From: an uncultured Pseudomonadota bacterium
GTDB lineage: Bacteria > Pseudomonadota > Gammaproteobacteria > Methylococcales > Methylomonadaceae
Direction: 5' to 3'
Length of the DNA stretch: 37,725 nt
Assembly (NCBI GenBank): GCA_903876445.1
Contig: CAIQZX010000053.1
Coordinates: 1 to 37,725, forward strand
Positions 3,036 to 37,092 of this stretch are shown here, piece by piece; position 1 is the stretch's first letter, and every line of letters starts with the position of its first letter. Under the pieces are notes generated by a model. That model was not told where the DNA came from. It saw only the letters and a list, made by a program, of their open reading frames with translations, and made no database searches. The translations under genes and the position numbers were made by a program.

Positions 3036-3193
3036 TGATTTTGCTCCCGCTTACGTTTCAAAAGTAAGCCGCGTAAAATTTGTTTGTTTGTTATTAACGG
3101 TTTGAGAATTCCGATAAACATCAGTACAAACGTCAAGCCATAAGAAGTCCAGACATAAAAGGCATAACCGCCCATTGCGAAAAATTCGCTCAT
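3032..3193 (-). CDS. ccmD: Haem exporter protein CcmD
   Basis: Small 53-residue membrane protein that acts with CcmABC in forming and releasing holo-CcmE. It begins MSEFFAMGGYAFYVW, has one membrane segment (about 11-31) and ends in a basic cytoplasmic tail (LLLKRKREQNQ), all typical of CcmD. Its stop overlaps the ccmE start (ATGA), and a GGAGAG ribosome binding site precedes the ATG. It is separated from its usual partner ccmC by 2.8 kb of inserted genes. The first 31 bases of its 5' region are repeated exactly at the end of ccmC, so this intact copy was rebuilt on the far side of the cassette. Confidence 0.92.
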   Translation of the reverse strand: MSEFFAMGGYAFYVWTSYGLTFVLMFIGILKPLITNKQILRGLLLKRKREQNQ

Positions 3194-3195
3194 TT
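3165..3195. repeat. Direct repeat copy 1, 5' end of intact ccmD
   Basis: Thirty-one bases identical to 5975-6005. They cover the ccmD start codon and its first nine codons or so. Just outside the repeat the ribosome binding sites are also alike (GGAGAGAAAATAAA here, GGAGGAAAATAA at the other copy), suggesting an originally longer duplication. The pair brackets the BrnT/LRR/J-domain cassette. Confidence 0.95.
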
Positions 3196-3265
3196 TATTT
3201 TCTCTCCGAAGGATTTTTATTTTTTGTGGTATGACGAAAATTCTAACCGCTACTTGAATCCGTCC

Positions 3266-4150
3266 TCATTTTAAAGCCGTTAATTCGGCTTCTAATTCTT
3301 TTTCCAACTCAGAAAAATAATTTTCTCTGTCGTCAATCGACAAAATTTGCTGATAAATTTCGTCGTCTTGCAATCGTTGTACTTCGATTTCTAACATGGC
3401 AATTCGTTCACGCAACGCCGCGATTTTCGATTGTAACGCTTCTTTGTTGTGAATACTTTCCGCTGCTGTTCCGAGTGAACCGCCCGTTTCTAATGCCGTT
3501 AAAATTTCAATTACTCGTTTCAAATCTTGGCGACGATAAGCGTCATTCAATTCTTTAAAAAACGCTTCGCCTTGTGCTTTGAATTCGTCGGCAAGTTTAT
3601 CGGGATGACACAAACGGCTGGCTTTTCGATACGCCGTTTTTAATGCTTGTTGCTCGTCAGGCGTTAAAGTTTGTGGCGCGTCTTCTCGTTGTTGCTGATA
3701 ACCTCGCTCAAATTCTTCGTAATCGTGTTGGGCTTGTTGTTTTTCAGTTTCATCGCTGCACAATTCGGCGCGGCGTTTCAAAATTTCTTCAATCAAACCA
3801 CCCAAACGACGAAAGTATTCGCCGTTGAATTCGTTAATTTCGCGTTCAAGTTCGGCTTGCGTATCGGTTAATTCAATCAACCGATTTTCCAACAGTTTCA
3901 ATTCCAGTTTTAAACCTTGAATTTGCGGGTCTTCGTACACGGTCAAACCACTGCTGTCGTGCTTGTACTGTTCAATCAATTGAATCACGTCTTGAAATTG
4001 CTGGGCGCGAATTAACGCCAAAATATGCTGCACTTGTTCATCGAGCGGCAACTTTTCAAGTTTTTGTACCTGCATCGCAATGAGGTCGTCTTCTTCCATT
4101 GCCACCGCGTTTTTGATGATGTCGAGGCGTTTTAAAATGTCGTTGGGCAT
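3266..4150 (-). CDS. Coiled-coil protein with an internal J-domain
   Basis: A 294-residue soluble protein. Residues 80-150 and 235-294 are rich in Glu, Lys, Leu and Gln heptads and should form coiled coils. Between them (about 163-212) is a J-domain-like segment carrying the diagnostic HPD tripeptide (182-184, in SRLCHPDKLADEF) and a following helix with FKELNDAYRRQD. J-domains stimulate Hsp70 ATPase, so it may recruit DnaK to a client; that role is inferred. No zinc finger or C-terminal DnaJ domains are present. It lies 11 bases after the LRR gene on the same strand and is the last gene of the cassette before ccmD. Confidence 0.75.
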   Translation of the reverse strand: MPNDILKRLDIIKNAVAMEEDDLIAMQVQKLEKLPLDEQVQHILALIRAQQFQDVIQLIEQYKHDSSGLTVYEDPQIQGLKLELKLLENRLIELTDTQAELEREINEFNGEYFRRLGGLIEEILKRRAELCSDETEKQQAQHDYEEFERGYQQQREDAPQTLTPDEQQALKTAYRKASRLCHPDKLADEFKAQGEAFFKELNDAYRRQDLKRVIEILTALETGGSLGTAAESIHNKEALQSKIAALRERIAMLEIEVQRLQDDEIYQQILSIDDRENYFSELEKELEAELTALK

Positions 4151-4161
4151 GATTTTCTTTA

Positions 4162-5289
4162 TTAGAATTTGGTGATGCTGTTGAGGTGGCTTAATTCTGG
4201 GGGTAGGGATTTGATGGGATTATTTCCTAAATGCAAATCCGTCAAATTAGTCAGCTTGCCAATAGATTCAGGCAGTTCGGTGAGTTGATTACCATAGAAG
4301 CGTAACGCAGTCAGATTCGTCAGTTTGCCAATAAATTCGGGAATTTCGGTGAGTTGATTTCTAGACAAATCCAACGCTGTCAGATTCGTCAGCTTGCCAA
4401 TAGATTCGGGAAAGTCTATGAGTTGGTTATAGTCCAAAGACAAACTCGTCAAATTAGTCAGTTTGCCAATAGATTCAGGAATTTCTGTGAGCCTGTTACG
4501 ATCCAAATATAACTCCGTCAGATTAGTCAGTTTATCAATAGATTCGGGAAGTTCTGAGAGTTGATTTTTATACAAATTCAAATACGTCAGATTGGTCAGT
4601 TTGCCGATAAATTCAGGAATTTCGGTGAGTTGGTTCCCGCTTAAATCTAACCACCTTAGATTCGTCAGCTTGCCAATAAATTCGGGAATTTCGGTCAGTT
4701 GATTAGGATGCGACTCTGTACCTTCCCAACCACCAAAATCCAAATATATTAGGTTAATCAATTTGCTGACTGATTGTGGGATTTTAGAAAAGTCATTACC
4801 GTTTAAATCTAACTTGGTTAGGTTGTGCAGATTTCCGATAGATTTTGGAATTTCGGTGAGTTGATTACTCCACAAATGCAACTCCGTCAAATTCGTCAGA
4901 TTGCCAATAGATTCGGGAATTGCTGTGAGCCAGCCGGTACTCAAATCCAACGCCGTCAGATTCGTCAGTTTGCCAATAGATTCGGGAAGTTCGGTGAGTT
5001 GATTACCATACAAATTCAACTCCGTCATTGCTAAAATTGCCTGCTTATTACGAGGCAAACCACGCCAAGTATCTGCGTAGCCATTATTATCATCATCAAA
5101 ATAATAATCAGGAATATCATTTTCATCAGCCCACGCAATCAATTCATCCAGCCACGCATCATCAACAACCGCCAGCCTTTTGCTTGCCAAAATCTTGTCG
5201 GTGATGCTCAATAAATTGCGGGTTTTGTGTAACGCTAATCCCGAATTTTCTATTATTTTTGGGAGGTTTTTGTTTTCATCTAACTTCAT
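4162..5289 (-). CDS. Leucine-rich repeat protein
   Basis: A 375-residue protein with no signal peptide or membrane segment. Residues 1-85 are a non-repetitive, acidic N-terminal region (DDAWLDELIAWADENDIP, then an Asp-rich turn). Residues 87-370 hold twelve LRRs of about 23 residues with the consensus LTNLTxLxLxxNQLTEIPESIGK, the bacterial SDS22/plant-like type. The fifth repeat carries an insertion of about eight residues. Such solenoids bind proteins; no catalytic domain is visible. The ATG lies inside the last codons of the antitoxin gene (14-base overlap), with AGGA seven bases upstream, so it is coupled to the toxin-antitoxin operon. Function unknown. Confidence 0.85.
   Translation of the reverse strand: MKLDENKNLPKIIENSGLALHKTRNLLSITDKILASKRLAVVDDAWLDELIAWADENDIPDYYFDDDNNGYADTWRGLPRNKQAILAMTELNLYGNQLTELPESIGKLTNLTALDLSTGWLTAIPESIGNLTNLTELHLWSNQLTEIPKSIGNLHNLTKLDLNGNDFSKIPQSVSKLINLIYLDFGGWEGTESHPNQLTEIPEFIGKLTNLRWLDLSGNQLTEIPEFIGKLTNLTYLNLYKNQLSELPESIDKLTNLTELYLDRNRLTEIPESIGKLTNLTSLSLDYNQLIDFPESIGKLTNLTALDLSRNQLTEIPEFIGKLTNLTALRFYGNQLTELPESIGKLTNLTDLHLGNNPIKSLPPELSHLNSITKF
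4240..5030. repeat. Tandem 69-bp DNA repeats encoding LRRs
   Basis: About a dozen imperfect tandem units of 69 bases, one per leucine-rich repeat, recur here. The phrases for xxLTNLT and IPESIGK are nearly identical at DNA level from unit to unit, consistent with recent expansion or homogenisation. One unit is longer by about 24 bases (around 4700-4730). Confidence 0.85.
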
Positions 5290-5551
5290 AAAGTGTTCCT
5301 GAAACGTACTTGTGCAAAATGCTAGAAATGAAGGCTTGATGCGGAATGCCTTGTTGCAACGCGGCTTTTTGAATGGCGGTGAAATCGCTTTCAGACACTT
5401 TGATATTCACGCGCTTACTTTGTTGAAAAGATTGTTTGGCGACCGTTTCAATAAATTGTTTTCGCTCGGGTGTCATAACGGATTGAAATTCACCTACGTC
5501 AAAGGCTTCGAGTAATTCTTGTTCTTCTGCGTCTAAGCTAAATTCTTTCAT
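5276..5551 (-). CDS. Antitoxin of a BrnT-like toxin, CopG/BrnA type
   Basis: A 91-residue acidic-then-basic protein. The C-terminal half (about 48-88, VNIKVSESDFTAIQKAALQQG then a helix) resembles the ribbon-helix-helix DNA-binding fold of BrnA/CopG-type antitoxins. The N-terminal part (EEQELLEAFDVGEFQSV) is the pattern seen in antitoxins that neutralise BrnT-like toxins. Its start overlaps the toxin stop in ATGA form, and the toxin-first order is the usual brnTA order. It likely neutralises the toxin and represses the shared promoter; this is inferred from family behaviour. Confidence 0.8.
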   Translation of the reverse strand: MKEFSLDAEEQELLEAFDVGEFQSVMTPERKQFIETVAKQSFQQSKRVNIKVSESDFTAIQKAALQQGIPHQAFISSILHKYVSGTLYEVR

Positions 5552-5835
5552 GATTCACTCTTGTTCAAATAGTGTTTAGTGGCTTTTCGACTGGGGATAA
5601 TTGTTTTTAAAAAGATTTCATTTTCAGATTCGACATACGGTACCAAATAAGCGTAGTCGTCGATTTTAATCACAAACATTCGTTGATGCCCGTAATCCGT
5701 TGTATTCGGATGTTCAACATCATCAAGCAAATTCCCAGATTGCAAATTAAAAATCGCCGTTTCAAAAGAGATGCCGCGTTCTTCAATGAGTTTGCGATTT
5801 TTCTCTGGATTCCAGTGGATTGGTTTTTTTATCAT
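5548..5835 (-). CDS. BrnT-like ribonuclease toxin (DUF497)
   Basis: A 95-residue protein of the BrnT/DUF497 type, RelE-fold ribonuclease toxins that block growth by cleaving RNA. The family features are the N-terminal IHWNPEKNRKLIEERGISFE, the central HQRMFVIKIDDYAYLVP strand pair, and the C-terminal KTIIPSRKATKHYL containing the conserved Arg/Lys. It belongs to the less studied subgroup with the VPYVES core rather than classical Brucella BrnT. It is first in its transcription unit, with an inverted repeat upstream. Confidence 0.8.
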   Translation of the reverse strand: MIKKPIHWNPEKNRKLIEERGISFETAIFNLQSGNLLDDVEHPNTTDYGHQRMFVIKIDDYAYLVPYVESENEIFLKTIIPSRKATKHYLNKSES

Positions 5836-5853
5836 TCAAAATGCCTGTATTTA

Positions 5854-5887
5854 GTGGAACGACGTAGACTTTAAACCACGTCGCCAC
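5854..5887. promoter_or_regulatory. Inverted repeat upstream of the BrnT-like gene, possible operator
   Basis: GTGG(aa)CGACGT (5854-5865) is complementary to ACGTCGCCAC (5878-5887): ten paired bases with a two-base bulge and a 12-base centre. It lies 19-52 bases upstream of the toxin start, where an autoregulatory antitoxin would bind. No promoter hexamers are clear. The rest of 5836-5967 holds nothing else I recognise. Confidence 0.4.
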
Positions 5888-5967
5888 AATGTAAACCTAC
5901 TTCGTCAACAAATAATCTAACCAAAAATTAGGCAATTTTTCTACACTGTGTTTTGTTTGAGAAAGGC

Positions 5968-6003
5968 TTAACCGTAACCGCCCATTGCGAAAAATTCGCT
6001 CAT
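5968..6003 (-). pseudogene. Remnant of ccmD 5' end, 11 codons
   Basis: The ATG overlaps the ccmC stop (ATGA), the native ccmC-ccmD junction, and reads MSEFFAMGGYG followed by TAA. The first ten residues are identical to intact ccmD. The DNA from 5975 to 6005 is identical to 3165-3195. This is the original ccmD start left behind when the cassette entered; it may still be translated as a short peptide. Confidence 0.9.
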
Positions 6004-6005
6004 TT
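5975..6005. repeat. Direct repeat copy 2, ccmC/ccmD junction
   Basis: Exact 31-base match to 3165-3195 in the same orientation, 2810 bases away. It covers the end of ccmC and the remnant ccmD start. The absence of any substitution implies a recent event or continuing gene conversion. Confidence 0.95.
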
Positions 6006-6743
6006 ATTTTCCTCCAATAATTCATCAATCCATTTCCCATTTGGTTCACGTTCTAATAATTCGTTTCGACAGCGTAATAAAAGAGCAATGGCATAATAAA
6101 CTTTAAATGCTAAAGCCATTACGAGTAACGGAATTAACATATCAATATGAATGGATGGTTTGTCTAATTTTGAAACGGTCGCGCCTTGATGCAAGGTGTT
6201 CCACCATTCGACTGAATAATGAATAATCGGAATGTTCACCACGCCAACTAACGCTAAAATCGCGACAGCGCGTGAAGCGGTGCGTTTATCTTCAATGCCG
6301 TTATAAAGTCCGATAACGCCTAAATACAAAAATAATAAAACCAATTCTGACGTTAAACGCGCATCCCAAACCCACCACGCGCCCCACATTGGTTTCCCCC
6401 AAAGTGAACCTGTAACAAGAGCCAAAAAGGTAAAACTTGCGCCGATTGACGCGCTCGAAATACTGACAATTTCAGCGAGTTTAATTCGCCAAACCAAGCC
6501 AATTCCACCGCTAATCGCCATCACGACATAAATAAACATCGACATCCACGCCGCTGGAACGTGAACATAAATAATTCGGAAACTATCACCTTGTTGATAA
6601 TCCGCAGGCGCAGTGACTAGACCGCCATATAAGCCATAACCCAATAACAGAAAAAATAATGCTGTTAGCCACGGAATGATTTTTCCACTTATTGCGTAAA
6701 AATAGGGTGGTGAGGAAAATTTATAAATGAATCGCATGAACAT
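6000..6743 (-). CDS. ccmC: Haem exporter permease CcmC
   Basis: Six-transmembrane inner-membrane protein that presents haem to CcmE. The 247 residues carry the WWD motif at about 115-129 (WGKPMWGAWWVWDAR) and flanking conserved histidines (His61 in YVHVPAAW, and one in IPIIHYSVEWWNTLHQG). Length is normal. A second in-frame ATG lies two codons in (6737). No ccmA or ccmB lies upstream; the next gene upstream is mltG on the same strand after a 234-base gap, so this may be a separate transcription unit with ccmAB elsewhere. Confidence 0.95.
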   Translation of the reverse strand: MFMRFIYKFSSPPYFYAISGKIIPWLTALFFLLLGYGLYGGLVTAPADYQQGDSFRIIYVHVPAAWMSMFIYVVMAISGGIGLVWRIKLAEIVSISSASIGASFTFLALVTGSLWGKPMWGAWWVWDARLTSELVLLFLYLGVIGLYNGIEDKRTASRAVAILALVGVVNIPIIHYSVEWWNTLHQGATVSKLDKPSIHIDMLIPLLVMALAFKVYYAIALLLRCRNELLEREPNGKWIDELLEENK

Positions 6744-6810
6744 AATTGATTTGAACTCGGCTTTTAAAAGATTGCTAAAAACAGCAAGATGTTAGAACTA
6801 AAATCGCGGC

Positions 6811-6816
6811 ATTATA
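6811..6816 (-). promoter_or_regulatory. Possible -10 element upstream of ccmC
   Basis: Read on the minus strand, a perfect TATAAT lies 68 bases before the ccmC start, beside a small palindrome (CTATAG...CTATA). No good -35 is found at 16-18 bases (CATTAT is best), so this is tentative. It lies in the 234-base gap between mltG and ccmC. Confidence 0.3.
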
Positions 6817-6934
6817 GTTCAGTTCTATAGACAATAATGCAAATGTTTGAATAGTGCAGAATATGAACCAAAAAATAAATAACCAATTAAATCAAAAGTA
6901 AATAGATGTAAAAAGTGAAATGATGATTTTTTAT

Positions 6935-6970
6935 TGCGGCATATCGCCTATTTAATCGTGATATGCCGCA
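6935..6970. repeat. Perfect inverted repeat after mltG
   Basis: TGCGGCATATC (6935-6945) and GATATGCCGCA (6960-6970) form an 11-bp perfect stem with a 14-base loop, eight bases beyond the mltG stop. It is placed to protect or end the fab-mltG transcript, but neither strand shows a following U-run, so it is not a standard intrinsic terminator. Confidence 0.6.
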
Positions 6971-6977
6971 AAATTTA

Positions 6978-7976
6978 TTATTTATGACGTTGATACATAT
7001 TTACAGCTGCATTATGCGCTTCCAATGTTGTTGAAAAAATGTGTGTGCCATCACCTTTTGACACAAAAAATAAAGATTCATTTGTATCGGGATGTAAGGC
7101 GGCATGAATTGCTTCACGACCTGCCATTGCAATCGGTGTCGGTGGTAAACCCTTAAATGTGTAAGTGTTGTAGGGTGTGAACAGCATTAAATCAGCGGCT
7201 TTGATGTTGCCTTCATAGCTATCGCCCATTCCGTAAATGACAGTTGGATCAGTTTGCAACATCATATCCTGTTGTAAACGACGACTAAAAACGCCTGCAA
7301 TTTGCGGGCGTTCTATTTGAGCGGCAGTCTCTTTTTCAATAATTGATGCCAAAATTAACGCTTGATAAGGTGTTGTCAGAGGTAAATTGTCGTCTCTATT
7401 TTTCCATTCATCCGCTAATACTAATTGCATTTTGCTATAAGCACGTTTCAAAATCGACGCATCTGTCGTGTGTTTTTCAAAAAAATAAGTATCCGGAAAA
7501 AATAATCCTTCAGGATGATTTTGCGAAATATTTAGTTTTGATACGATTGAATCAAACGGTACGCCTTGTAAGGTATGTTGAATGTATGGATTTTTATCTA
7601 ATTCTTGACGTACTTGTTTAAAATTCCAACCTTCGGGAAACGTAATAGCGTGTTGTTTCACTTTACCTTGTACAAATAGCGTTATAATTTCATCCGATTT
7701 TATACCTGTTGCTAATTCATATTCGCCAGATTTGATTTGTTTATTTCGGTCATTTCTTTTTGCCAACATCTTGAACCAAAAGGGTTTTATTTTAACATTT
7801 TGGGCAACTAATTTATCTGTAATTTGTTTGAGATTATCGCCTTTTTCAATTTCAATCGTTACAGGTTTATCGAAAACCGTCGGATTGCTAATTGCACTTT
7901 CATAATCCATCCACACCCAACCACCGATATAACTCAGTCCAATTAGCGTGTAACCTACGATTTTATTTAATTGCAT
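6978..7976 (-). CDS. mltG: Endolytic murein transglycosylase MltG
   Basis: Inner-membrane lytic transglycosylase that cuts nascent peptidoglycan strands and so sets glycan chain length. The 332 residues have an N-terminal membrane anchor (about 8-23), a LysM-like subdomain (about 38-110) and the YceG catalytic domain with Glu214 in LASIIEKET, the counterpart of the catalytic Glu218 of E. coli MltG. Further family signatures are QTDPTVIYG and GLPPTPI. It overlaps pabC by 14 bases. In E. coli tmk and holB follow; here the cluster ends at mltG. Confidence 0.95.
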   Translation of the reverse strand: MQLNKIVGYTLIGLSYIGGWVWMDYESAISNPTVFDKPVTIEIEKGDNLKQITDKLVAQNVKIKPFWFKMLAKRNDRNKQIKSGEYELATGIKSDEIITLFVQGKVKQHAITFPEGWNFKQVRQELDKNPYIQHTLQGVPFDSIVSKLNISQNHPEGLFFPDTYFFEKHTTDASILKRAYSKMQLVLADEWKNRDDNLPLTTPYQALILASIIEKETAAQIERPQIAGVFSRRLQQDMMLQTDPTVIYGMGDSYEGNIKAADLMLFTPYNTYTFKGLPPTPIAMAGREAIHAALHPDTNESLFFVSKGDGTHIFSTTLEAHNAAVNMYQRHK

Positions 7977-8784
7977 AAACCACCTGTTTTTGTTTTTCGC
8001 TTTCTAGCGCAAGTTGTAATTTTTGGGTTATCCCATTTTCCGAATAATAATGCACACCATTTAATTCACGCACATTCCAAATTCCAATAACAGAATTACA
8101 GACAAAAATTTCGTCAGCGTCGCGTAAATCGTCGATAAAAAAATCGTGTTCAATGACGGGGAGTTGTTGAAAAATCCAACTGCGAATAATACCAGTGATA
8201 CCGCACAGTGTAAGTGAAGCTGTAAATAATGTGCCTTTTTTTACATAAAAAAGATTCGTCATTGTACCTTCAATGACACGTTTATTGATGTCCAACATAA
8301 TACCTTCTTGAATTGTGTCATCGTTCCATTCAGCACGCGCCATCACTTGCTCTAAACGATTTAAATGTTTCATGCCCGCTAAATCGGGATTCAAACCCAA
8401 TCGTGTTTTACAAACACGCGCCACAATGCCATCGGAATAATACGTTTTCGGATAATGAGGAAACGGATGCAAACTCAAAATGCGAGTCGGTTGAATTTCA
8501 TCCGGTTGGCGATAACCGCGTCCGCCTGTGCCGCGCGTAAGAATGATTTTTAAAACAGCATCACCCGCATTTTCGCATAGCTGTTTTATTTCAGAATGTA
8601 ATAAATCTAAATCAATTTTAGGCAGATAAAGCCGTTGGGAATCTTTATTTAAGCGTTGTAGATGTTGCTCAAGAAAAATCGGTTGATTAGCAAGAATCTC
8701 GATAGTTTCAAATAATCCGTCGCCGTATTGAAAGCCACGATTCATAATCGCAATAGTATCTTCTTGTTTACCATTGACGAGCAT
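7963..8784 (-). CDS. pabC: Aminodeoxychorismate lyase PabC
   Basis: PLP enzyme of folate synthesis that converts 4-amino-4-deoxychorismate to p-aminobenzoate and pyruvate. The 273 residues show the class IV aminotransferase fold: NRGFQYGDGLFETI near the N-terminus, the PLP-binding lysine Lys139 in AGMKHLNRLEQ (Lys140 in E. coli), and VIEGTMTNLFYV before the C-terminal domain. It sits between fabF and mltG, the standard gammaproteobacterial order, and overlaps mltG, so the two are coupled. Confidence 0.93.
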   Translation of the reverse strand: MLVNGKQEDTIAIMNRGFQYGDGLFETIEILANQPIFLEQHLQRLNKDSQRLYLPKIDLDLLHSEIKQLCENAGDAVLKIILTRGTGGRGYRQPDEIQPTRILSLHPFPHYPKTYYSDGIVARVCKTRLGLNPDLAGMKHLNRLEQVMARAEWNDDTIQEGIMLDINKRVIEGTMTNLFYVKKGTLFTASLTLCGITGIIRSWIFQQLPVIEHDFFIDDLRDADEIFVCNSVIGIWNVRELNGVHYYSENGITQKLQLALESEKQKQVVYAIK

Positions 8785-8812
8785 TTTTAGAATCGTGGTT
8801 TGTGTGTAGTTT

Positions 8813-10054
8813 TTATTGGAAACGTTTGAAAATCAACGTTCCGTTCGTGCCACCAAACCCAAATGAATTTGACATAGCCACGTCTATTTTCATTTCACGC
8901 GCTATATTTGGTACATAATCCAAATCACATTCGGGGTCTTGGTTTTCTAAGTTAATCGTAGGTGGTGCGATTTGATGTTGAATACTTAATGCTGTTAAAA
9001 CTGCTTCAATACCTCCTGCTGCACCCAACATGTGACCAATCATAGATTTGGTGGAGCTGATGGCAACTTTATAAGCGTGTTCGCCTAAAGCGGCTTTCAT
9101 CGCTTGCGTTTCACCAAAATCACCGGCTGGCGTAGAAGTTCCATGAGCATTGATATAATTCACATCCGAAACGTTCAAACCTGCGTCACGCAACGCATTT
9201 CGCATACAACGCGCTGCACCTTCACCGCCTTCTGATGGCGTAGTAATGTGATACGCATCGCCGCTCATTCCGTAACCCACAAGTTCTGCATAAATTTTTG
9301 CACCACGCGCTTTAGCGTGTTCGAGTTCTTCCAAAACCACGACTCCCGCACCATCGCTTAATACAAAACCGTCACGGTCTTTATCCCATGGACGGCTAGC
9401 CTGTTGTGGCGCGTCATTACGGCGTGAGAGAGCCTTTGCCGAAGCGAATCCGCCCATTGCGGTAGGTGACGTTGTACAGCGTTCAGCACCACCCGCAATC
9501 ATGACATCTGCATCACCGTATTTAATCAAACGCGCAGCGTCGCCAATGTTATGTGTTCCCGTGGCACAAGCTGTAACAATTGCAAAGTTTGGTCCTTTCA
9601 AACCGTACTTAATCGATAAATTGCCCGAAATCATATTGATGATATTGCCTGGCACAAAAAAAGGCGAAATTCGACGTGGTCCGGATTTATCATAAGTAGC
9701 AAAACATTCTTCAATGCCTGTAATACCACCAATTCCCGAACCAATTGCTACGCCAATTCGTTCGGCATTTTCTTCGGTTACGATTAGTCCCGAATCTTCA
9801 AATGCCTGACAACCTGCGGCAATGCCATAATGCACAAAGCCATCCATGCGTTTCGCATCTTTTTCAGAAATATATTGACTGATGTCAAAATTGCGAATTA
9901 CGCCACCAAACGTGGTTGCGAAAGGGGAAATATCAAAAGAATCAATTGCACCAATGCCACTTTTGCCGTTGATAATACCCGACCAAGTTTCTGCAACTGT
10001 GTTAGCTAAAGGCGTAACTGCGCCTAATCCTGTGATGACGACTCGACGTTTCAA
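8813..10054 (-). CDS. fabF: Beta-ketoacyl-ACP synthase II
   Basis: Condensing enzyme that elongates acyl-ACP with malonyl-ACP in type II fatty acid synthesis. From the TTG at 10054 the protein is 413 residues, the usual FabF length, and begins [10 protein letters not shown]. Catalytic residues are Cys163 (TACATGTHN) and the two histidines in [11 protein letters not shown] and [13 protein letters not shown] longer frame from a GTG at 10138 would add 28 unrelated residues and read through a hairpin, so I reject it. No clear Shine-Dalgarno precedes the TTG, so translation may be modest compared with acpP. Confidence 0.93.
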
Positions 10055-10108
10055 TGTTGTGTACCGTAGAAAATTAAATAAAAGAAAGGAAGTTTTGCGC
10101 GGCGCACC

Positions 10109-10132
10109 GTGGATGAACATTTGTTCATCCAC
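10109..10132. promoter_or_regulatory. Hairpin between acpP and fabF
   Basis: GTGGATGAAC (10109-10118) pairs perfectly with GTTCATCCAC (10123-10132) around a four-base loop, 13 bases after the acpP stop. On the minus strand it is followed by a GC-rich stretch and only later by pyrimidines, so it is a partial terminator or a processing and stability element rather than a full stop. Such an element would help acpP message exceed fabF message. Confidence 0.6.
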
Positions 10133-10144
10133 ACGCACTTTTAA

Positions 10145-10375: not shown

Positions 10376-10481
10376 AATTTATTCCTCTAACAAAACAAGC
10401 GATTGAATGCCGCTTATCTTGGATTATTGTTGTTGTTTTTACTGAAAATGCCGTTACCAGCAATGCCAGCCGACAGCGCAA

Positions 10482-29507: not shown

Positions 29508-29659
29508 ATTTTAATTTGGGGTAAAAGGTTAAAATCAAGTTTTCAAAAAACACACGTTGCATAGCGTGAATTTTAACATGCTGTTGATTATTGAAATAAT
29601 AATACTGTTATTTATCGACACAGCTGTGTTTTTTACAATTAAACAATTTTGAGATTTCT

Positions 29660-30445: not shown

Positions 30446-31072
30446 ATGTTGTCGATGCCAAAACGTGGACTTTATGCGATTACGCCAGATGGAAAATCGG
30501 CTGATGATATTTTGGAGTTTACCGCCGCTGTTTTGAAAGGTGGCGCGTGTGTTGTTCAATATCGCCAAAAAAATTTGCTGAATGCCATCGATTTAGCGAA
30601 AGCATTGCTTGAACTTTGCCACGCGCATCATGTGCCATTCATCATCAATGACAACGTAGAATTGGCTGAAAAGATTGGTGCAGATGGTGTGCATTTGGGC
30701 AAAGAGGACGGTTCAATTTCAGAAGCACGTCAGCGTTTGGGTGAATCCGCGATTATTGGCGTATCGTGTTATAACTCGTTAGAAATGGCGATTGAAGCAG
30801 AAAAACAAGGCGCAAATTATGTGGCATTTGGGCGATTTTTTACTTCAAACTCGAAACCACTTGCTGCACCTGCTGAAATCGGCACATTAACTGCTGCAAA
30901 AAAAATCTTAACATTGCCAATTATCGCGATTGGCGGAATTTTGCCTGAAAATGGTGCATCGTTGTTAGATGCAGGTGCAGATTTATTAGCTGTAATTGGT
31001 GGTTTAGATACCGAAAATTCTACGTTTGCTGCACAAGCGTTTACGGCATTATTTTCACAACGCAGTCATTAA
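30446..31072 (+). CDS. thiE: Thiamine phosphate synthase
   Basis: Joins HMP-PP and HET-P to thiamine phosphate. The 208 residues form a TIM barrel with the motifs VVQYRQKN, IINDNVELA, DGVHLGKED and the later IAIGGI. The usual phosphate loop is replaced by AFGRFFTSNSKP, a variant seen in gammaproteobacterial ThiE. The ATG follows the thiD stop directly (TAAATG), with GGAGAG upstream, so the genes are coupled. Confidence 0.92.
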   Translation: MLSMPKRGLYAITPDGKSADDILEFTAAVLKGGACVVQYRQKNLLNAIDLAKALLELCHAHHVPFIINDNVELAEKIGADGVHLGKEDGSISEARQRLGESAIIGVSCYNSLEMAIEAEKQGANYVAFGRFFTSNSKPLAAPAEIGTLTAAKKILTLPIIAIGGILPENGASLLDAGADLLAVIGGLDTENSTFAAQAFTALFSQRSH

Positions 31073-31073
31073 A

Positions 31074-31805
31074 ATGTTACGTTTTACAAAAATTTTTCTT
31101 ACATTTATTTTGGGGTTAGTTATGACACAGCAAAACGCGCTTGCGCTCGAAAGCGTTGAAATTCCAGCAACTTCCACGCACAAATACTCGGTCATTTGGT
31201 TGCACGGTTTAGGGGCTGATGGTCACGATTTTGAAAACATCGTACCTGAATTGCATTTGATTGATTCGTCTAGCATTAAATTTATTTTTCCGCACGCGCC
31301 AATTCAAAAAATCACTGTTAATCATGGCGCAGAAATGCGGGCTTGGTACGACATTATAAAAATGAATGATTTGAATCGTGACGTTGATGTAAAAGGCATT
31401 CAGCATTCGGCAACGCTAATAAATCAATTGATTCAAAAAGAAATTGATAGCGGTATTCCATCGAAAAACATTTTATTGGTCGGATTTTCACAAGGCGGCG
31501 TTTTAGCGTTGCATACAGGTTTACGTTTTAATCAGCCATTAGCGGGAATTATTGCGTTATCGACCTATTTACCGACGTTGGATAGTTTGAAAACGGAACG
31601 CACTGAGGCGAATAATCACACGCCTATTTTTATGTCGCACGGAATTATTGATTCTGTTGTAGCGATTGAAACAGGAAAAGCCGCGTTTGATGGTTTGAAA
31701 GCGATGGGTTATACGATTCAATGGCACGATTATGTAATGGAACACAGTTTATGTGTGGAAGAAATTGAACAAATTGCAGGGTTTGTGAACACGGTTCTTA
31801 AATGA
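31074..31805 (+). CDS. Carboxylesterase/phospholipase, alpha/beta hydrolase
   Basis: A 243-residue hydrolase of the acyl-protein thioesterase/carboxylesterase type (Abhydrolase_2): WLHGLGADGHDF oxyanion region, nucleophile in GFSQGGVLAL, Asp in HGIIDSVV and His in MEHSLCVEEIEQI. From the ATG at 31074 there is a hydrophobic N-terminus (LRFTKIFLTFILGLVMT...ALA) that looks like a signal peptide, although most relatives are cytoplasmic. A later ATG (31122) would remove most of it. A frame from 31026 is rejected because it overlaps thiE. The stop overlaps the next gene by four bases. Confidence 0.85.
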   Translation: MLRFTKIFLTFILGLVMTQQNALALESVEIPATSTHKYSVIWLHGLGADGHDFENIVPELHLIDSSSIKFIFPHAPIQKITVNHGAEMRAWYDIIKMNDLNRDVDVKGIQHSATLINQLIQKEIDSGIPSKNILLVGFSQGGVLALHTGLRFNQPLAGIIALSTYLPTLDSLKTERTEANNHTPIFMSHGIIDSVVAIETGKAAFDGLKAMGYTIQWHDYVMEHSLCVEEIEQIAGFVNTVLK

Positions 31806-33391
31806 GTTTATTTGCGGTCGAAAATTTAACGATTCGATTTGGTGATGCGCCACCCGTTGTCGATAAAATTACGTTTGAAATTCACGCTGGTGAAACGTTT
31901 GCTTTAGTCGGTGAATCGGGTTCAGGAAAATCAATGACAGCGTTAGCGGCATTAAATTTGTTGCCACACAACGCGATTATTGAAAGTAAAACGCGATGTT
32001 TGGAAAACGAAAATTTAGATGAACTTTCGGAAAAAGCATGGTGCAAAATTCGTGGGCGACGAATTGCGATTATTTTTCAAGATCCAATTTCGTCGTTAAA
32101 TCCCGTGATGACGATTGGGCAGCAAATTGCCGAAGTTTTGAATTTGCATTTCAAACTTTCAAAAATAGAACTTAAAAACCGTGTTGTAGAATTATTGCAG
32201 CAAGTTGAATTGCCTAATGCCGCGCAACGTATCAAAGATTATCCACATCAACTTTCAGGCGGACAACGTCAGCGCGTGATGATTGCGATAGCGTTAGCGG
32301 GGAAACCCGATTTATTGATTGCTGACGAACCCACCACCGCGTTAGACGTAACAATTCAAGCGCAAATTTTAGAGTTACTCAAAAATATCCAAGCGCAAAC
32401 TGGCATGGCGTTGTGGTTAATCAGTCATGATTTAGCGTTAGTTTCGAGTATTGCGAATCGGGTTTCGGTCATGCAAAACGGCAAAATTGTCGAAACAGGC
32501 GAAGCAAAATCTATTTTTCAAAATCCCCAACATCCTTACACGCAAAAATTAGTTGCCGCTTTGCCGTCGATGAAAAGTTGCGAAAATAAAGAAATCATCG
32601 TTAAACCTTCGTTATTAGAAGTGCAAAACTTCCACTCTCATTATCCGATTCGTAAAGGCATTTTGAAGCGCGTTGTTGATTATGTTCGCGCGGTTGATGG
32701 CGTGAGTTTTTCATTGCAAAAAGGTAAAACGCTGGCACTCGTTGGTGAATCGGGTTGCGGCAAAACCACGTTGGGCAAAGCCTTGTTGCATTTGATTCCA
32801 TCGAATGGCGGCGAAGTTTTTTTAAATGGCATCGCGTTACACTCGCTGACGGGTGAAGCGTTACGCCAACAACGCGCAGAAATTCAAATTGTATTTCAAG
32901 ATCCGTTTTCATCGATGAATCCGCGAATGTTAATTGGTGAAATTATCGCCGAAGGTTTGCAAGCATTACGCCCTGAAATGCCCGTCACTGAACGTGAAAT
33001 GCGAGTTGCCGCGTTGTTAAAACGTGTGGAATTACCCGAAGAAGCCATGTATCGCTATCCGCATGAATTTTCGGGCGGACAACGACAACGAATTTGCATT
33101 GCTCGCGCTTTAGCCGTTGAACCGAAAGTGATTATTTGCGACGAACCAACCAGCGCGTTAGATGTTTCTGTTCAAGCGCAAATTATTCAATTATTGAAAA
33201 CCTTGCAACGCGAACAAGGAATGAGTTATTTATTTATCACCCATGATTTGGGTGTGGTGGCAGAAATCGCTGACGATGTCGCCGTCATGTACAAAGGAAA
33301 AATTGTTGAAAATGGTTCTGTAAAACAAGTTCTCACCGCACCACAACATCCTTACACACAAAAATTATTAGCCGCTGTACCCAAATTTTAA
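31802..33391 (+). CDS. yejF: ABC transporter ATP-binding protein, YejF-type tandem
   Basis: A 529-residue protein with two complete ATPase domains as in YejF, the ATPase of peptide (microcin C-type) importers. Walker A motifs are GESGSGKS (about 38-45) and GESGCGKT (about 315-322); signatures are LSGGQRQR and FSGGQRQR; Walker B motifs are LLIADEPT and VIICDEPT. The oligopeptide-type C-terminal regions (HPYTQKL) end each half. No permease or binding protein is adjacent in this window. Its ATG overlaps the esterase stop. Confidence 0.9.
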   Translation: MSLFAVENLTIRFGDAPPVVDKITFEIHAGETFALVGESGSGKSMTALAALNLLPHNAIIESKTRCLENENLDELSEKAWCKIRGRRIAIIFQDPISSLNPVMTIGQQIAEVLNLHFKLSKIELKNRVVELLQQVELPNAAQRIKDYPHQLSGGQRQRVMIAIALAGKPDLLIADEPTTALDVTIQAQILELLKNIQAQTGMALWLISHDLALVSSIANRVSVMQNGKIVETGEAKSIFQNPQHPYTQKLVAALPSMKSCENKEIIVKPSLLEVQNFHSHYPIRKGILKRVVDYVRAVDGVSFSLQKGKTLALVGESGCGKTTLGKALLHLIPSNGGEVFLNGIALHSLTGEALRQQRAEIQIVFQDPFSSMNPRMLIGEIIAEGLQALRPEMPVTEREMRVAALLKRVELPEEAMYRYPHEFSGGQRQRICIARALAVEPKVIICDEPTSALDVSVQAQIIQLLKTLQREQGMSYLFITHDLGVVAEIADDVAVMYKGKIVENGSVKQVLTAPQHPYTQKLLAAVPKF

Positions 33392-33426
33392 CTTTCAAAA
33401 ATTTTTTATAAAACGAGATAAACAAA

Positions 33427-33969
33427 ATGCTAAATGAAATTAAACACGTCCGTGAAAATGCAGAGTTATTACACAGTAAAGAAGAAATCGAAGCCGCTTT
33501 AGATTCAATGGCGCAACAGATTAACCAATTACTTGCTGATAGAAATCCGCTTGTTTTATGCGTGATGAATGGCGGTTTGGTGGTGGCGGGACAGTTACTG
33601 ACTCGTTTAACAATGCCGCTTACGATTGATTCGATTAACGCCAGTCGTTATCAAAATAAAACGGTCGGCGAAGAAATTGAGTGGATTATCAAACCGCGTG
33701 CGTCGTTAGAAAATCGGACAGTTTTAATTATCGACGATATTTTAGACGCGGGAATTACGTTGGCGGCAATTTATGACTATTGTATTCAACACGGTGCAAG
33801 TTCGGTTTATACGGCGGTTTTACTAGATAAAAATCTGCCACAAACAAAACCGATTGCAGCAGATTTTGTGGGCATAAACGTCGCCGACCGTTATGTATTT
33901 GGTTACGGTATGGATTACAAAGGATATTGGCGAAATGCTGACGGCATTTTTGCTTGTGTTGAAAATTAA
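33427..33969 (+). CDS. hpt: Hypoxanthine-guanine phosphoribosyltransferase
   Basis: Purine salvage enzyme, 180 residues. It has VMNGGLVVAGQLLTRL near 46-61, the PRPP-binding loop VLIIDDILDAGITLA (about 99-113) and the C-terminal DYKGYWRN. Spaced 35 bases after yejF, the last gene of the plus-strand run. No terminator is visible between it and the converging DUF1566 gene, 24 bases away. Confidence 0.9.
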   Translation: MLNEIKHVRENAELLHSKEEIEAALDSMAQQINQLLADRNPLVLCVMNGGLVVAGQLLTRLTMPLTIDSINASRYQNKTVGEEIEWIIKPRASLENRTVLIIDDILDAGITLAAIYDYCIQHGASSVYTAVLLDKNLPQTKPIAADFVGINVADRYVFGYGMDYKGYWRNADGIFACVEN

Positions 33970-33993
33970 CCAACAAAAGGAAAAAAAACACTG

Positions 33994-34113
33994 TCACCCG
34001 CGCACTAACCGAACATTATCGTAGTCGTTCTTACTGTAGTTGCTTGAATAGCCGTAGCCGAAATGGACGATCCACGCATTGTAACTACCGTACGCATAAG
34101 GCGAGGAAGACCA
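33994..34113 (-). other. Possible hypervariable 3' segment of the DUF1566 gene
   Basis: The last 39 codons, starting at the FWSSS motif, contain many NNC/NNT codons for Tyr, Asn, Ser, Gly and Asp (such as GGC TAC GGC, AAC TAC AGT, GAC TAC GAT) just before a GC-rich end. This is how the variable region of a diversity-generating retroelement looks, but no reverse transcriptase or template repeat is in the window, so it is a suggestion only. Confidence 0.3.
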
Positions 34114-34851
34114 AAAATATGCTCCGTTTTTCGGAAAAACATTCACATCAATGAAATTTCTTTCCTCGCCGCGCTCTTTATCAATTAACGTTTTTAATTC
34201 GTCAATGGTTGGCACGCGCCAATCATTGCAACCGGCATAACCTATGCGGTTAAATTCGGAAGGAATTTTCATGGCATTATCCCAATTTCTTGCTTCAGCT
34301 TCTCCTGTAACTGTGCCATTTTCCCATTGTTGTCCGTAAGCAAAACGTAACCATGTCAAACCTGTTTCTGTATCTGTTGCGATGCCATCTTGAACGAAGA
34401 ATTTGCCAATTTTTTGTTGCTCGGAAGCGTCTATTTTTGCGGTTGTGGATTTTGACGGCGTTGCAATTTCTTGTTTTAATGCGTCGTTTTCAGCTTGAAG
34501 CCGTTGAATTTCAGCGTGTAATTGCTCAATTTCATCATCCGAATTTTCGACAGGCGAATGCGTTTTTTTATAATTGTGCAAAATTTCACGCGCTTCAATG
34601 TCGTTCAATTCACGCCCAAAAATTTCACACAAATTTTTAAATAATTGTGCTTCGTGTTCTTTTTCTGAAATAAGTAAGGCTTCCAGTTTTCCAGCCAATT
34701 CCTCAAATTTTCGAACGCGCAACCAACGCGCTAATTTTCCAGTGTAAAAATGTGTAAATAATTCGGGCGTTAAATTTTGTTGAACATCTTTTAAGAAGGC
34801 GAGGGTGATTTCGCCGTTGCTAAGTTTTAAATCGAATTTTATAGGTTTCAT
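33994..34851 (-). CDS. Coiled-coil protein with C-terminal DUF1566 (Lcl) domain
   Basis: A 285-residue protein. Residues 15-95 are an unassigned helical domain (HFYTGKLARWLRVRKFEELA), 104-131 a coiled coil and 152-285 a DUF1566/Lcl C-terminal domain with GLTWLRFAYGQQWE, NDWRVPTIDELKTLI, FWSSS and the end VRLVRG. This is a C-type-lectin-like fold also found as the variable receptor in diversity-generating retroelements. No signal peptide. It follows the AAA gene by 14 bases with its own AAGGA, so it is likely its partner. The last 40 residues are unusually rich in Tyr, Asn and Ser. Confidence 0.82.
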   Translation of the reverse strand: MKPIKFDLKLSNGEITLAFLKDVQQNLTPELFTHFYTGKLARWLRVRKFEELAGKLEALLISEKEHEAQLFKNLCEIFGRELNDIEAREILHNYKKTHSPVENSDDEIEQLHAEIQRLQAENDALKQEIATPSKSTTAKIDASEQQKIGKFFVQDGIATDTETGLTWLRFAYGQQWENGTVTGEAEARNWDNAMKIPSEFNRIGYAGCNDWRVPTIDELKTLIDKERGEERNFIDVNVFPKNGAYFWSSSPYAYGSYNAWIVHFGYGYSSNYSKNDYDNVRLVRG

Positions 34852-34865
34852 AGTTTTTCCTTTTT

Positions 34866-36365
34866 TTAAGAAGCGGCTTTAATTTTCAAATCCTTAAATT
34901 TATCTTCGTATTCTTTAATTTTGTGTTTCATCACTTCTTTCAACGGATGTGTATTTTGAACCACATCAAGCAATTTTTCTGTTGTCAGCGCAGAACGATT
35001 TTGCACAAACGCCGTTTCAATCGCTTCTTTCACAACCGCTTCAATGTCTGCCCCTGAAAAACCGTCTGTTTTTTCAGCTAATTTTTTAACGTCGATATTT
35101 GCGTTTTGATTGCGTTTTTGTAAATGAATGTTAAAAATGTTTTCGCGTTCGGATTTGTTAGGAAAATCGACGTAAAAAATTTCGTCAAACCGTCCTTTGC
35201 GTAATAATTCGGGCGGCAACGCTGAAATATCATTAGCGGTTGCCAAGACAAACACCGCATCTTTTTTGTCTTGCATCCATGTTAAAAAATATCCAAACAA
35301 ACGTGTCACGACTTCTGAACCCGCGCCACCATCTCCAATACCAACAAAGGCTTTTTCTAATTCATCAACCCACAAAACACAAGGGCTAACGGCTTCGGCA
35401 AGTTTCAACGCGCGGCGCATATTCGATTCACTTTCACCGACATATTTTCCCATTAACGAACCGACATCTAAACGCAATAATGGTAATTTGAATAAAGAAG
35501 CCGTGGCTTTTGCTGTGAGTGATTTTCCGCAACCGGGCATTCCGACAATCATCGCGCCTTTTGGAGCTTCCACGCCAAAATTTAACGCTTCGCTTAAATT
35601 GCCTAGAACGTGTGCTTTTTGTTCCAACCATTTTTTCAAATTCGATAAACCGCCAACATTTTCAAATTGTTCGTTCGTAACAATCATTTCAAGCGTGCCT
35701 GATTTTTTGATGATTTGTTCTTTTTCTTTTAAAACTAATACTGCGTCTTTACTGCTGATTTGTCCGTCTTGTTGAAAACAGCGCGTGAGTAATTGCGTGA
35801 TTTCATGTTCGCTCAAACCACGAAAGGCTAATGTTAAATCGTTTAAATCTTTCGAGGCAATGGTTTCGCCTACATTACTAACAAATTGATTGATGATTTT
35901 TTCAATGCCATTTTCATCAGGTAAAGGTAAATCAAACAAGGTAACAAATTTTTCAAGTTCGGGCGGAATGCACACTTGCGAGGAAACTAAAATCACGGTC
36001 GCATTTGCATCAGTATCGCTCATGATTTTTTGCGCTAACGCTTTTAAACGCGCCACAACTAACGGATTTTCACGCATTGCTAAATGCGCGTCTTTGATGA
36101 TTAAAAAATGATTCGTTAATTCGTCAGATAACCAATTTTCTAGCGTGGCGGCTAAATCTCGATAATCCAATTGTGGTTGTTTGTGTTTAAAATCAACAAT
36201 CCCTCGCGCTAAATTCCATTCAAAAATTTTACGGTTGTCGTCTTGGGCAAGTTGCCGAATTAAATTGTCGGCGTGTTTTTCTTCAAATGTTACTAAATAC
36301 AACATCGGATAATTGGATTCAATGTGAGCGCGAATGTTGGCGTAGAGGTTTTCTGTGTTGGTCAT
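34866..36365 (-). CDS. Ycf46-like AAA ATPase
   Basis: A 499-residue protein. The N-terminal part (1-200, with YPMLYLVTFEE, FLIIKDAHLAM and IPPELEKFVTLFDLPLP) looks like a degenerate ATPase domain, and 230-499 is an active-looking AAA domain: Walker A GMPGCGKS (275-282), Walker B VLWVDE (330-335) and the arginine finger region RKGRFDEIFYVDFP (389-402). That plan is the one of cyanobacterial/plastid Ycf46; the role in proteobacteria is unknown. I take the ATG at 36365; a TTG at 36380 is in frame but overlaps the toxin stop. The first 35 coding bases are duplicated upstream of the antitoxin gene. Confidence 0.85.
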   Translation of the reverse strand: MTNTENLYANIRAHIESNYPMLYLVTFEEKHADNLIRQLAQDDNRKIFEWNLARGIVDFKHKQPQLDYRDLAATLENWLSDELTNHFLIIKDAHLAMRENPLVVARLKALAQKIMSDTDANATVILVSSQVCIPPELEKFVTLFDLPLPDENGIEKIINQFVSNVGETIASKDLNDLTLAFRGLSEHEITQLLTRCFQQDGQISSKDAVLVLKEKEQIIKKSGTLEMIVTNEQFENVGGLSNLKKWLEQKAHVLGNLSEALNFGVEAPKGAMIVGMPGCGKSLTAKATASLFKLPLLRLDVGSLMGKYVGESESNMRRALKLAEAVSPCVLWVDELEKAFVGIGDGGAGSEVVTRLFGYFLTWMQDKKDAVFVLATANDISALPPELLRKGRFDEIFYVDFPNKSERENIFNIHLQKRNQNANIDVKKLAEKTDGFSGADIEAVVKEAIETAFVQNRSALTTEKLLDVVQNTHPLKEVMKHKIKEYEDKFKDLKIKAAS

Positions 36366-36378
36366 TTTTGTTTTTCTC
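36331..36378. repeat. Direct repeat copy 1, start of AAA gene
   Basis: Forty-eight bases matching 37045-37092 at 45 positions, same orientation. They cover the 13 bases before the AAA start codon and its first 35 bases. The three differences fall within the coding part. Confidence 0.93.
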
Positions 36379-36793
36379 AATGCTGTTTCAATAAAATTTC
36401 AAAGCCTGCTTGTTCAAAGTGTTTATCTGCCGTGAACACAGTCGTAATTTGGTTTTTTCTAGCTAGAATAATGCTGCTGCAATCTACTAATCCCCATTCT
36501 TTATCTTCCATTTGTGTGAACAAATCGAGGCTTTTCGTCATTAAAATTTCGTTGATTGGCACAACTGCCCACGCTTTTGATTTGTAAATGCTGTTAATCA
36601 TTTGCACAGCAGTTGCTCTAAATTTAATCCGACTAAACGCATTACAAAATTCTGCAATCACAAAATCACTGGTCATAAAATGGCTTTGATTTTTGACCAA
36701 TTCTTTTTGTACTTCCCATGCAATGTGATGAAAAGCATCTTGTTTATTACCCAACGCAATCAAAGCAGCAGTATCGACAAAAACAGTATTCAT
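36377..36793 (-). CDS. PIN-domain toxin, VapC-like
   Basis: A 138-residue ribonuclease of the PIN fold with the acidic residues Asp7 (FVDTAALIAL), Glu48 (VIAEF), Asp104 (WGLVDCSS) and Asp123 (TADKHFEQAGF), a complete Mg-binding set. It likely cuts RNA as VapC toxins do. It overlaps the antitoxin start region by four bases upstream and its stop codon lies in the leader of the AAA gene, within the repeated sequence. The antitoxin-first order is the usual vapBC order. Confidence 0.88.
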   Translation of the reverse strand: MNTVFVDTAALIALGNKQDAFHHIAWEVQKELVKNQSHFMTSDFVIAEFCNAFSRIKFRATAVQMINSIYKSKAWAVVPINEILMTKSLDLFTQMEDKEWGLVDCSSIILARKNQITTVFTADKHFEQAGFEILLKQH

Positions 36794-37032
36794 TTTTTAT
36801 CAACGCCGTAAAGATAGTGGTCATGATTTAACGCAAAATCCTCAATGCCCGTATCAATACTCGGCAAATCAATGTTTGCATTTGTCCACGGGTCATTATC
36901 TAAAACCGTTTTCTGCGATGAAAAAAGTTGAAAAGATTTAGCTTCGTTGATTAAACGTAGCTCAACTTCTTTAACAATTTGTGTTAAACGCTCTTGCGGT
37001 AACGTATCGGGAACGTTAATAGTTAGTTGCAT
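36790..37032 (-). CDS. Putative VapB-like antitoxin
   Basis: An 80-residue protein, cognate by position. The N-terminal part (QLTINVPDTLPQERLTQIVKEVELRL) could form a ribbon-helix-helix DNA-binding unit. The acidic C-terminal part (NANIDLPSIDTGIEDFALNHDH) would wrap the PIN toxin. Four-base overlap with the toxin. Its ribosome binding site (GAGAG) lies within the stop region of the AAA remnant, so remnant and antitoxin may be translated together. Confidence 0.75.
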   Translation of the reverse strand: MQLTINVPDTLPQERLTQIVKEVELRLINEAKSFQLFSSQKTVLDNDPWTNANIDLPSIDTGIEDFALNHDHYLYGVDKK

Positions 37033-37037
37033 GATGA

Positions 37038-37079
37038 TTACTCTCGAATGTTGCCGTAAAGGTTTTCTGTATTGGTCAT
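37038..37079 (-). pseudogene. Remnant of the AAA gene start, 13 codons
   Basis: The reading is MTNTENLYGNIRE then TAA, against MTNTENLYANIR in the intact gene. Two of the three DNA differences are silent and one gives Ala to Gly, then the copies diverge. It lies five bases before the VapB-like start. This is the original or a copied gene start cut off by the toxin-antitoxin insertion. Confidence 0.88.
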
Positions 37080-37092
37080 TTTTGTTTTTCTC
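37045..37092. repeat. Direct repeat copy 2, AAA gene remnant
   Basis: Partner of 36331-36378, 714 bases away. The 13 bases before the ATG (GAGAAAAACAAAA on the minus strand) are identical in both copies, and three substitutions lie in the next 35. Confidence 0.93.

What the first reader, a model, noticed from the sequence alone, without database searches (positions are those of the whole stretch)
3165..37092. Shared start-codon insertion plan for two unrelated toxin-antitoxin cassettes
Two cassettes of different toxin families (BrnT-like, PIN) occupy the same relation to their target: upstream remnant with native start and early stop, cassette, then an intact gene restored by a duplicated start region. 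All parts face the same way. Repeat divergence differs (0 of 31, 3 of 48), implying separate ages. This suggests a common route, for instance a recombinase or replication-slippage process supplied elsewhere, that targets gene starts and carries a copy of the target's first codons. The duplication would keep the host gene alive while placing the addiction module inside its operon.
Basis: inference. Interest (0 to 1): 0.85.

Follow-up and report, generated by a model that had tools for sequence, protein, structure and literature searches.

The report
Toxin-antitoxin genes duplicate gene edges
In one bacterial genus, small toxin-antitoxin gene pairs are repeatedly found inserted at the edges of ordinary genes with a short copy of the edge on both sides, so the host gene stays intact while the addiction module sits beside it.

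Summary
Both cassettes are bracketed by duplicated gene starts (ccmD, 31 exact bases; an AAA ATPase, 45 of 48), each with an upstream remnant that stops early. Empty sites exist: ccmC-ccmD is adjacent in 11 of 13 same-genus relatives examined; the other two carry an unrelated PDDEXK_2 gene at the same ATG. In the genus, 25 of 93 toxin-antitoxin loci are tightly bracketed by repeats, against 0 of 30 acetyltransferase loci and 21 of 2000 random intervals. Start codons are only one class: 9 of the 25 loci are at gene starts or leaders, 6 at gene ends, 9 at terminators or intergenic repeats, 1 unresolved (by inspection). Related modules at different sites carry different repeats, which points to target duplication. 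No recombinase was matched in either window cassette; Ku was found in 0 of 18 genomes. [quoted passage not shown] Extending it to bare toxin-antitoxin operons at gene edges looks new; the step that makes the duplication is inferred. Outside the genus the gene-edge pattern was not shown.

The parts
6000..6743 (-). ccmC, gene upstream of insertion 1; its stop overlaps the ccmD remnant start (ATGA)
   Evidence: Pfam Cytochrom_C_asm E 9.5e-37
5975..6014 (-). upstream copy of the ccmD start region (remnant, 11-codon ORF MSEFFAMGGYG)
5548..5835 (-). BrnT-like toxin
   Evidence: Pfam BrnT_toxin E 3.9e-08, 33.9 bits, just below the curated cut-off 34.5
5276..5551 (-). CopG-type antitoxin
   Evidence: Pfam CopG_antitoxin E 2.5e-07
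4162..5289 (-). leucine-rich-repeat protein inside insert 1
   Evidence: Pfam LRR_4 E 4.7e-55
3266..4150 (-). DnaJ-domain protein inside insert 1
   Evidence: Pfam DnaJ E 8.4e-07
3165..3204 (-). downstream copy of the ccmD start region
3032..3193 (-). intact ccmD
   Evidence: Pfam CcmD E 1.6e-14
37122..37697 (-). Fic/DOC-family gene upstream of insertion 2
   Evidence: Pfam Fic E 1.5e-20
37045..37092 (-). upstream copy of the AAA-gene start (remnant, 13-codon ORF MTNTENLYGNIRE)
36790..37032 (-). antitoxin candidate of insert 2; no Pfam or NCBIfam match; the first part is shared with G004, where the toxin differs
36377..36793 (-). PIN toxin
   Evidence: Pfam PIN E 3.9e-10
36331..36378 (-). downstream copy of the AAA-gene start
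34866..36365 (-). intact AAA ATPase gene from the ATG in the downstream copy
   Evidence: Pfam AAA E 1.3e-30; ATG at 36365

Best explanation
These are insertions of addiction modules with long target duplication. A toxin-antitoxin operon (in case 1 with two passenger genes) entered a junction between genes, and a few dozen bases of the target ended up on both sides (31-40 and 48 in the window; 26-67 among the tight loci of the genus). Where the duplicated segment spans a gene start, the downstream copy keeps the native gene whole and the upstream copy becomes a short remnant whose start or stop often lies at or near the module's first codon. Where it spans a gene end, the upstream copy keeps the gene whole and the module may use the target's stop or start region. 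Shown: the two window cases, the genus-wide excess, single-copy sites for four targets, repeats that differ between sites of related modules, a shared strand. Inferred: that the duplication arises in the insertion event itself (aberrant replication with template switching, or Ku-independent repair of a staggered break), that selection against broken genes and for co-expression explains the boundary bias, and that the repeats later allow exchange and tandem arrays of modules by recombination.
For: Empty versus filled: ccmC-ccmD adjacent in 11 of 13 same-genus loci; nifS-like gene of G010 against G011, 96 percent over 146 bases once the filled site is read as one copy, duplication of 42 bases beginning at the ATG; gene tail of 46 bases single in G002 and double in G008; tail of 59 bases single in G009 and double in G000 and G012. 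Excess: 25 of 93 toxin-antitoxin loci against 21 of 2000 random intervals (Fisher 1.8e-23) and 0 of 30 acetyltransferase loci (p 0.0005). With a looser rule 0 of 29 ccmC and 0 of 18 FtsH-type loci have any repeat (these two sets are partly from other genera and the own ccmC locus was left out). Boundary: 11.8 percent of random 42-base segments touch a gene boundary or are intergenic, while in 24 of the 25 tight loci I placed the repeats at such places and saw no gene split in its interior; L141 is unresolved (by inspection). Local origin: BrnT modules of L165, L167 and L169 match only over about the two ORFs yet have three different repeats; the same holds for PIN modules L108 and L112.
Against: The 93 loci are not independent (L101 and L102 are one place; L134/L135 and L164/L165 look orthologous) and are the best matches the tool returned, not all matches. 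The 9 terminator or intergenic loci may include dispersed repeats. 68 of 93 loci are not tightly bracketed; 82 of 93 have more than 600 bases on both sides, of which 24 are tight. In other genera of the family 8 of 28 BrnT loci are bracketed, but with intergenic or dispersed repeats and none clearly at a gene start or end. The PDDEXK_2 gene at ccmD in G010 and G011 has no long duplication, only AAATGA shared at both junctions. In G008 the orphan tail, not the copy in the intact gene, matches G002. One leader-module-leader unit lies in two unrelated contexts, which simple target duplication does not predict.
Confidence: 0.7

Rival explanations
1. Homology-driven import: a module already next to a copy of the target start or tail, as a circle or fragment from a relative, recombined with the resident target and left a copy on each side.
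For: Leader-module-leader unit 95 percent identical over 502 bases with unrelated flanks; similar tails host modules in G000, G004 and G011; toxin swap at the AAA site between G000 and G004; RecA-independent recombination between 46-base repeats gives circles in E. coli K12 (PMC5426353, passages).
Against: Copies within a locus differ little: 0-3 mismatches in the 15 start or end loci, the worst 3 of 28, and 0 of 31 for ccmD, while ccmD with its flank is about 78-91 percent identical between species; in the nifS case the upstream copy equals the sister genome's single copy. It also needs a first insertion at each new site.
Confidence: 0.2
2. A dedicated recombinase or nuclease encoded elsewhere recognises gene starts and inserts cassettes with a copy of the target's first codons.
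For: Junctions at or close to start codons in several cases; PDDEXK_2 matches are found in 15 of 18 genomes and one sits at the ccmD start in two relatives.
Against: Gene ends and terminators are used as well; repeat length varies from 26 to 67 bases in the tight loci; I saw no shared sequence at the cassette ends; 3 of 18 genomes gave no PDDEXK_2 match and the family's link to these insertions is only positional.
Confidence: 0.06
3. The gene start was first duplicated in tandem, and a module later inserted between the copies.
For: Would also leave an upstream remnant and an intact gene; no call supports it.
Against: Examined empty sites show no tandem copy: 11 ccmD loci, 16 of 16 other nifS-like loci scanned (some end close to the gene, one only 38 bases upstream), the G002 tail, the G009 tail.
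Confidence: 0.04

Closest known systems
Insertion with long target duplication of restriction-modification genes (Nobusato et al. 2000, Gene 259:99, and Furuta et al. 2010; both known here only through passages of PMC3874152, PMC3031569 and PMC1643837)
   Same: Addiction-type genes, an empty allele in relatives, long direct repeats of variable length, movement described as unlinked to a known mobile element.
   Different: Cargo is bare toxin-antitoxin operons of at least three toxin families; the repeats are shorter (26-67 bases in the tight loci, 92 for one outer pair; order of 100 in the review); they lie at gene starts, ends and terminators, and many cases occur in one genus.
Operon insertion of restriction-modification systems (described in PMC4615327, passages)
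   Same: Same-strand placement of an addiction module inside an operon, proposed there to impose operon maintenance.
   Different: Here the start or end of the neighbouring gene is duplicated, which explains how the gene survives.
Integrative elements that replace the 5' end of their target gene (recalled, for example SXT-type elements in prfC)
   Same: The target keeps an intact start after insertion.
   Different: Those are large and carry an integrase (recalled); the window cassettes are 0.7 and 2.8 kb with no integrase match.
Rpn gene-within-gene toxin-antitoxin systems (PMC10327210, passages)
   Same: A gene matching PDDEXK_2 (nuclease family transposase) occupies the same ccmD start in G010 and G011, possibly another addiction module.
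   Different: Membership of that gene in Rpn was not tested; the text search of that paper found no mention of PDDEXK.

Membership tests
Insertion with long target duplication | filled and empty alleles in related genomes | tested here: met
   ccmD empty in 11 of 13, nifS-like G010 against G011, gene tail G002 against G008, tail G009 against G000
Insertion with long target duplication | long, variable direct duplication of target sequence | tested here: met
   26-67 bases among the 25 tight pairs and 92 for the outer pair on contig C8; shorter than the roughly 100 bases quoted in PMC3874152
Insertion with long target duplication | cargo is a restriction-modification gene complex | tested here: not met
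   cargo is BrnT, PIN or ParE type toxin-antitoxin; hence a variant, not a member in the strict sense
Insertion sequence or transposon | transposase gene and fixed short target duplication | tested here: not met
   no transposase among the Pfam matches of the ORFs of either window insert; lengths vary
Integrase-driven island | integrase gene and att core | tested here: not met
   no integrase match in the window inserts; repeats differ between sites of related modules
Ku-dependent end joining | Ku present in the host | tested here: not met
   0 of 18 genomes; the control search rang in Bacillus subtilis
Type II toxin-antitoxin (BrnT/BrnA, PIN) | toxin and antitoxin activity | not testable with these tools
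   family matches only

The most novel reading that the evidence does not exclude
In this genus a recombinase-free cassette system is at work: toxin-antitoxin operons move as bare open reading frames, land at translation or transcription junctions, and copy the junction so that both the newcomer and the displaced gene get a start or end signal; the copied junctions then act as homology for swapping and stacking further modules.
Probability: 0.25. Interest if true: 0.85.

Novelty: new variant of a known kind. Interest (0 to 1): 0.62.

Why it matters
How small toxin-antitoxin pairs spread without transposases is an open question. Here one genus supplies many filled sites and several empty ones with the duplicated target still readable, so the insertion step, its target choice and the loss of modules could be measured. 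It also shows how an addiction module can enter a cytochrome c maturation operon without breaking it.

Tried and rejected
Start-codon specificity: rejected; 9 of 25 tight loci are at starts or leaders, 6 at ends, 9 at terminators or intergenic repeats, 1 (L141) unresolved (by inspection).

Ku-dependent end joining: rejected, 0 of 18 genomes. PDDEXK_2 genes as parallel cargo with duplications: 5 of 30 loci are bracketed under a slightly looser rule; by inspection some are paralogous gene tails, so no clear parallel. BrnT loci in other genera of the family: 8 of 28 bracketed, by inspection mostly intergenic or dispersed repeats, so the gene-edge pattern was not shown outside the genus.

The loose bracketing rule gave 29 of 93 toxin-antitoxin loci against 54 of 1000 random intervals, many of these in a few repeat-rich places. 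The strict rule was set after seeing this; its 25 loci are the same 25 as those with spacing under 1300. Of its 21 random hits 19 fall, by position, in a CRISPR array, a repeat-rich gene region and toxin-antitoxin regions of G011.

The 945 kb sample is not random: G011 contigs C2 and C18 were chosen because they hold such loci, and other contigs because hits lay on them; dense repeat families and colinear pairs were filtered out first. Of 39 remaining pairs I count 19 that are not simply both inside coding sequence (small ORFs on C8 set aside); of these 12 enclose or adjoin toxin-antitoxin genes (one, G011 C33 at 47838, only by a weak PIN match). The other 7 are G000 C16, two on C12 (contents not scanned), G000 C18 (an antidote-family gene beside an ORF without a match), G011 C33 at 49751 (a DUF1902 match), a tandem pair on G011 C24 at 69341, and one on G003 C26.
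Full report
Observation. The window is contig C53 of a draft genome of 2.81 Mb in 223 contigs. The two closest named records are MAGs labelled uncultured proteobacterium and Methylococcales bacterium. Case 1 lies in a cytochrome c maturation operon: ccmC, then a 40-base copy of the ccmD start, a BrnT-like toxin, a CopG-type antitoxin, an LRR protein, a DnaJ-domain protein, then intact ccmD. Case 2 lies between a Fic-family gene and an AAA ATPase gene: a 48-base copy of the AAA start, an antitoxin candidate without a family match, a PIN protein, then the AAA gene. The two repeats are the longest exact ones in the window outside the LRR array.

Empty and alternative sites. Of 17 same-genus genomes searched, 13 gave a usable ccmC locus. 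In 11 of these 13 ccmC and ccmD are adjacent, with overlapping stop and start. In the other two (G010, G011) an insert of about 830 bases occupies the same ATG: a single PDDEXK_2 gene, just below its Pfam cut-off, without a long duplication. At the AAA site, G004 has the same remnant and the same first part of the antitoxin but a different toxin sequence and antitoxin end; that toxin is a PIN-family match too. G001 has remnant, antitoxin and a PIN toxin at 82 percent identity to the window, with different sequence upstream of the remnant. Case 2 is therefore probably older than the split of these genomes (or was passed between them), and the cassette has been exchanged in place.

Genus-wide test. 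Loci of three toxin families were taken from 18 genomes, as many as the tool returned: 33 PIN, 30 ParE, 30 BrnT. A repeat of at least 24 bases and 85 percent identity brackets the toxin in 10, 7 and 12 of them, 29 of 93, against 0 of 30 acetyltransferase loci and 54 of 1000 random intervals. With spacing up to 1300 and at least one copy outside the interior of a long ORF, the figures are 25 of 93, 0 of 30, and 21 of 2000 (same 25 loci as). With a rule that asked only for any repeat of 20 bases or more, toxin-antitoxin loci gave 11 of 33, 8 of 30 and 13 of 30, ccmC loci 0 of 29 and FtsH-type 0 of 18 (partly other genera, own ccmC locus left out), acetyltransferases 2 of 30; those two are the neighbours of a BrnT insertion. 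The 93 loci contain orthologues and one double place, so the number of events is smaller than 25. From the window, the tight loci and the sample scan I count 14 events at starts, leaders or ends by inspection: 8 at starts or leaders, 6 at ends.

Classes. Starts: ccmD, the AAA gene (G000, G004), a nifS-like gene (G011; the name rests on recall of the sequence), a gene with an IF2_N match under its cut-off (G010, G011), a long ORF in G010, a small ORF in G005, and leader repeats in G003 and G011. Ends: an Eco57I-type methylase tail on own contig C8, where copies of 30-92 bases separate several modules; tails that look methylase-like to me (not scanned) on own contig C182, in G012, in G004 and in G011; the tail of an 877-residue ORF in G011; and the tail of a gene that I recall as lpdA in G008, where the antitoxin ORF ends with the target's last codons and stop. 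Terminators or intergenic repeats: 9 loci. In the start and end cases the module lies on the strand of its target (by inspection).

Target origin of the repeats. BrnT modules at L165, L167 and L169 align with one another only over about the two ORFs, yet each has a different repeat (a gene tail, an intergenic repeat, another gene tail). PIN modules L108 and L112 (82 percent identical over 598 bases) have two different terminator-like repeats. The sister pair G010 and G011 shows the nifS-like site empty and filled, with 42 bases duplicated from the ATG onward; 16 of 16 other nifS-like loci scanned have one copy, some with little upstream sequence. The lpdA-like tail is single in G002 and double in G008; there the orphan copy matches G002 and the intact gene's copy has the one difference.

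Results that do not fit simple target duplication. One leader-ParE module-leader unit is 95 percent identical over 502 bases in G003 and G011 with unrelated flanks. In G010 a 5' fragment of the nifS-like gene, about 66 codons, lies after another BrnT module at a different place. These suggest that a module can sometimes carry a piece of a former target.

How it may work. Shown: insertion, duplication, intact host gene. Inferred: the duplicated edge gives start or end signals to both newcomer and host gene, since in several start cases the module's first codon lies in or next to the upstream copy. Only 11.8 percent of random 42-base segments touch a boundary or are intergenic, so the bias needs either target choice or selection; selection against broken genes and for co-transcription suffices and I prefer it. 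Ku was not found, which leaves replication template switching or Ku-independent repair for the founding step; I could not separate them.

Known work. The review PMC3874152 (passages) says that some restriction-modification systems insert with long and variable target duplications in the order of 100 bp, citing Nobusato 2000 and Furuta 2010. PMC3031569 (passages) and PMC1643837 (passages) agree. [quoted passage not shown] PMC4615327 (passages) describes same-strand operon insertion of restriction-modification genes. The listings of searches (15 of 17; 6; 19; 15 of 1,363; 3; 10 of 12) showed no title or abstract start that reports toxin-antitoxin operons with long target duplications; this covers only the open library and I read only the passages named.

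Verdict. The finding is real, wider than stated and differently explained. It is a new variant of a known kind of gene mobility, shown so far in one genus.

Noticed in passing
L012 and L013 (G010, G011), ccmC-ccmD junction: A single PDDEXK_2 gene sits exactly at the ccmD start, the same site as the window's insert, without a long duplication. The stretch before ccmD (TCGGAGAGAAAA...) resembles that of the window and not that of the empty relatives.
   Followed up: partly
L372 (G010 contig C84) 5205-5402: A fragment of about 66 codons of the nifS-like gene start lies after a different BrnT module, away from the other copy of the gene start on contig C34.
   Followed up: partly
window 36377-37032 and L032: Toxin and antitoxin end differ between G000 and G004 at the same site while the antitoxin start and the remnant are kept.
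   Followed up: partly
L205-L206 (G011 contig C24, about 58.0-62.6 kb): A long CRISPR-type array with 28-base repeats about 61 bases apart.
   Followed up: no
L378 (G015 contig C93) 7082-7706: The window's BrnT-CopG pair at 89 percent identity at another site; it is followed by only the first few codons resembling the LRR gene, another possible start remnant.
   Followed up: no
window 37604-37725: The last 122 bases of the contig are 99 percent identical to the end region of contig C11 (L086 9750-9871), an assembly join or a repeat.
   Followed up: no
L068 (own contig C8): An Eco57I-type methylase gene is followed by stacked toxin-antitoxin-like pairs, separated by copies of a gene tail.
   Followed up: partly
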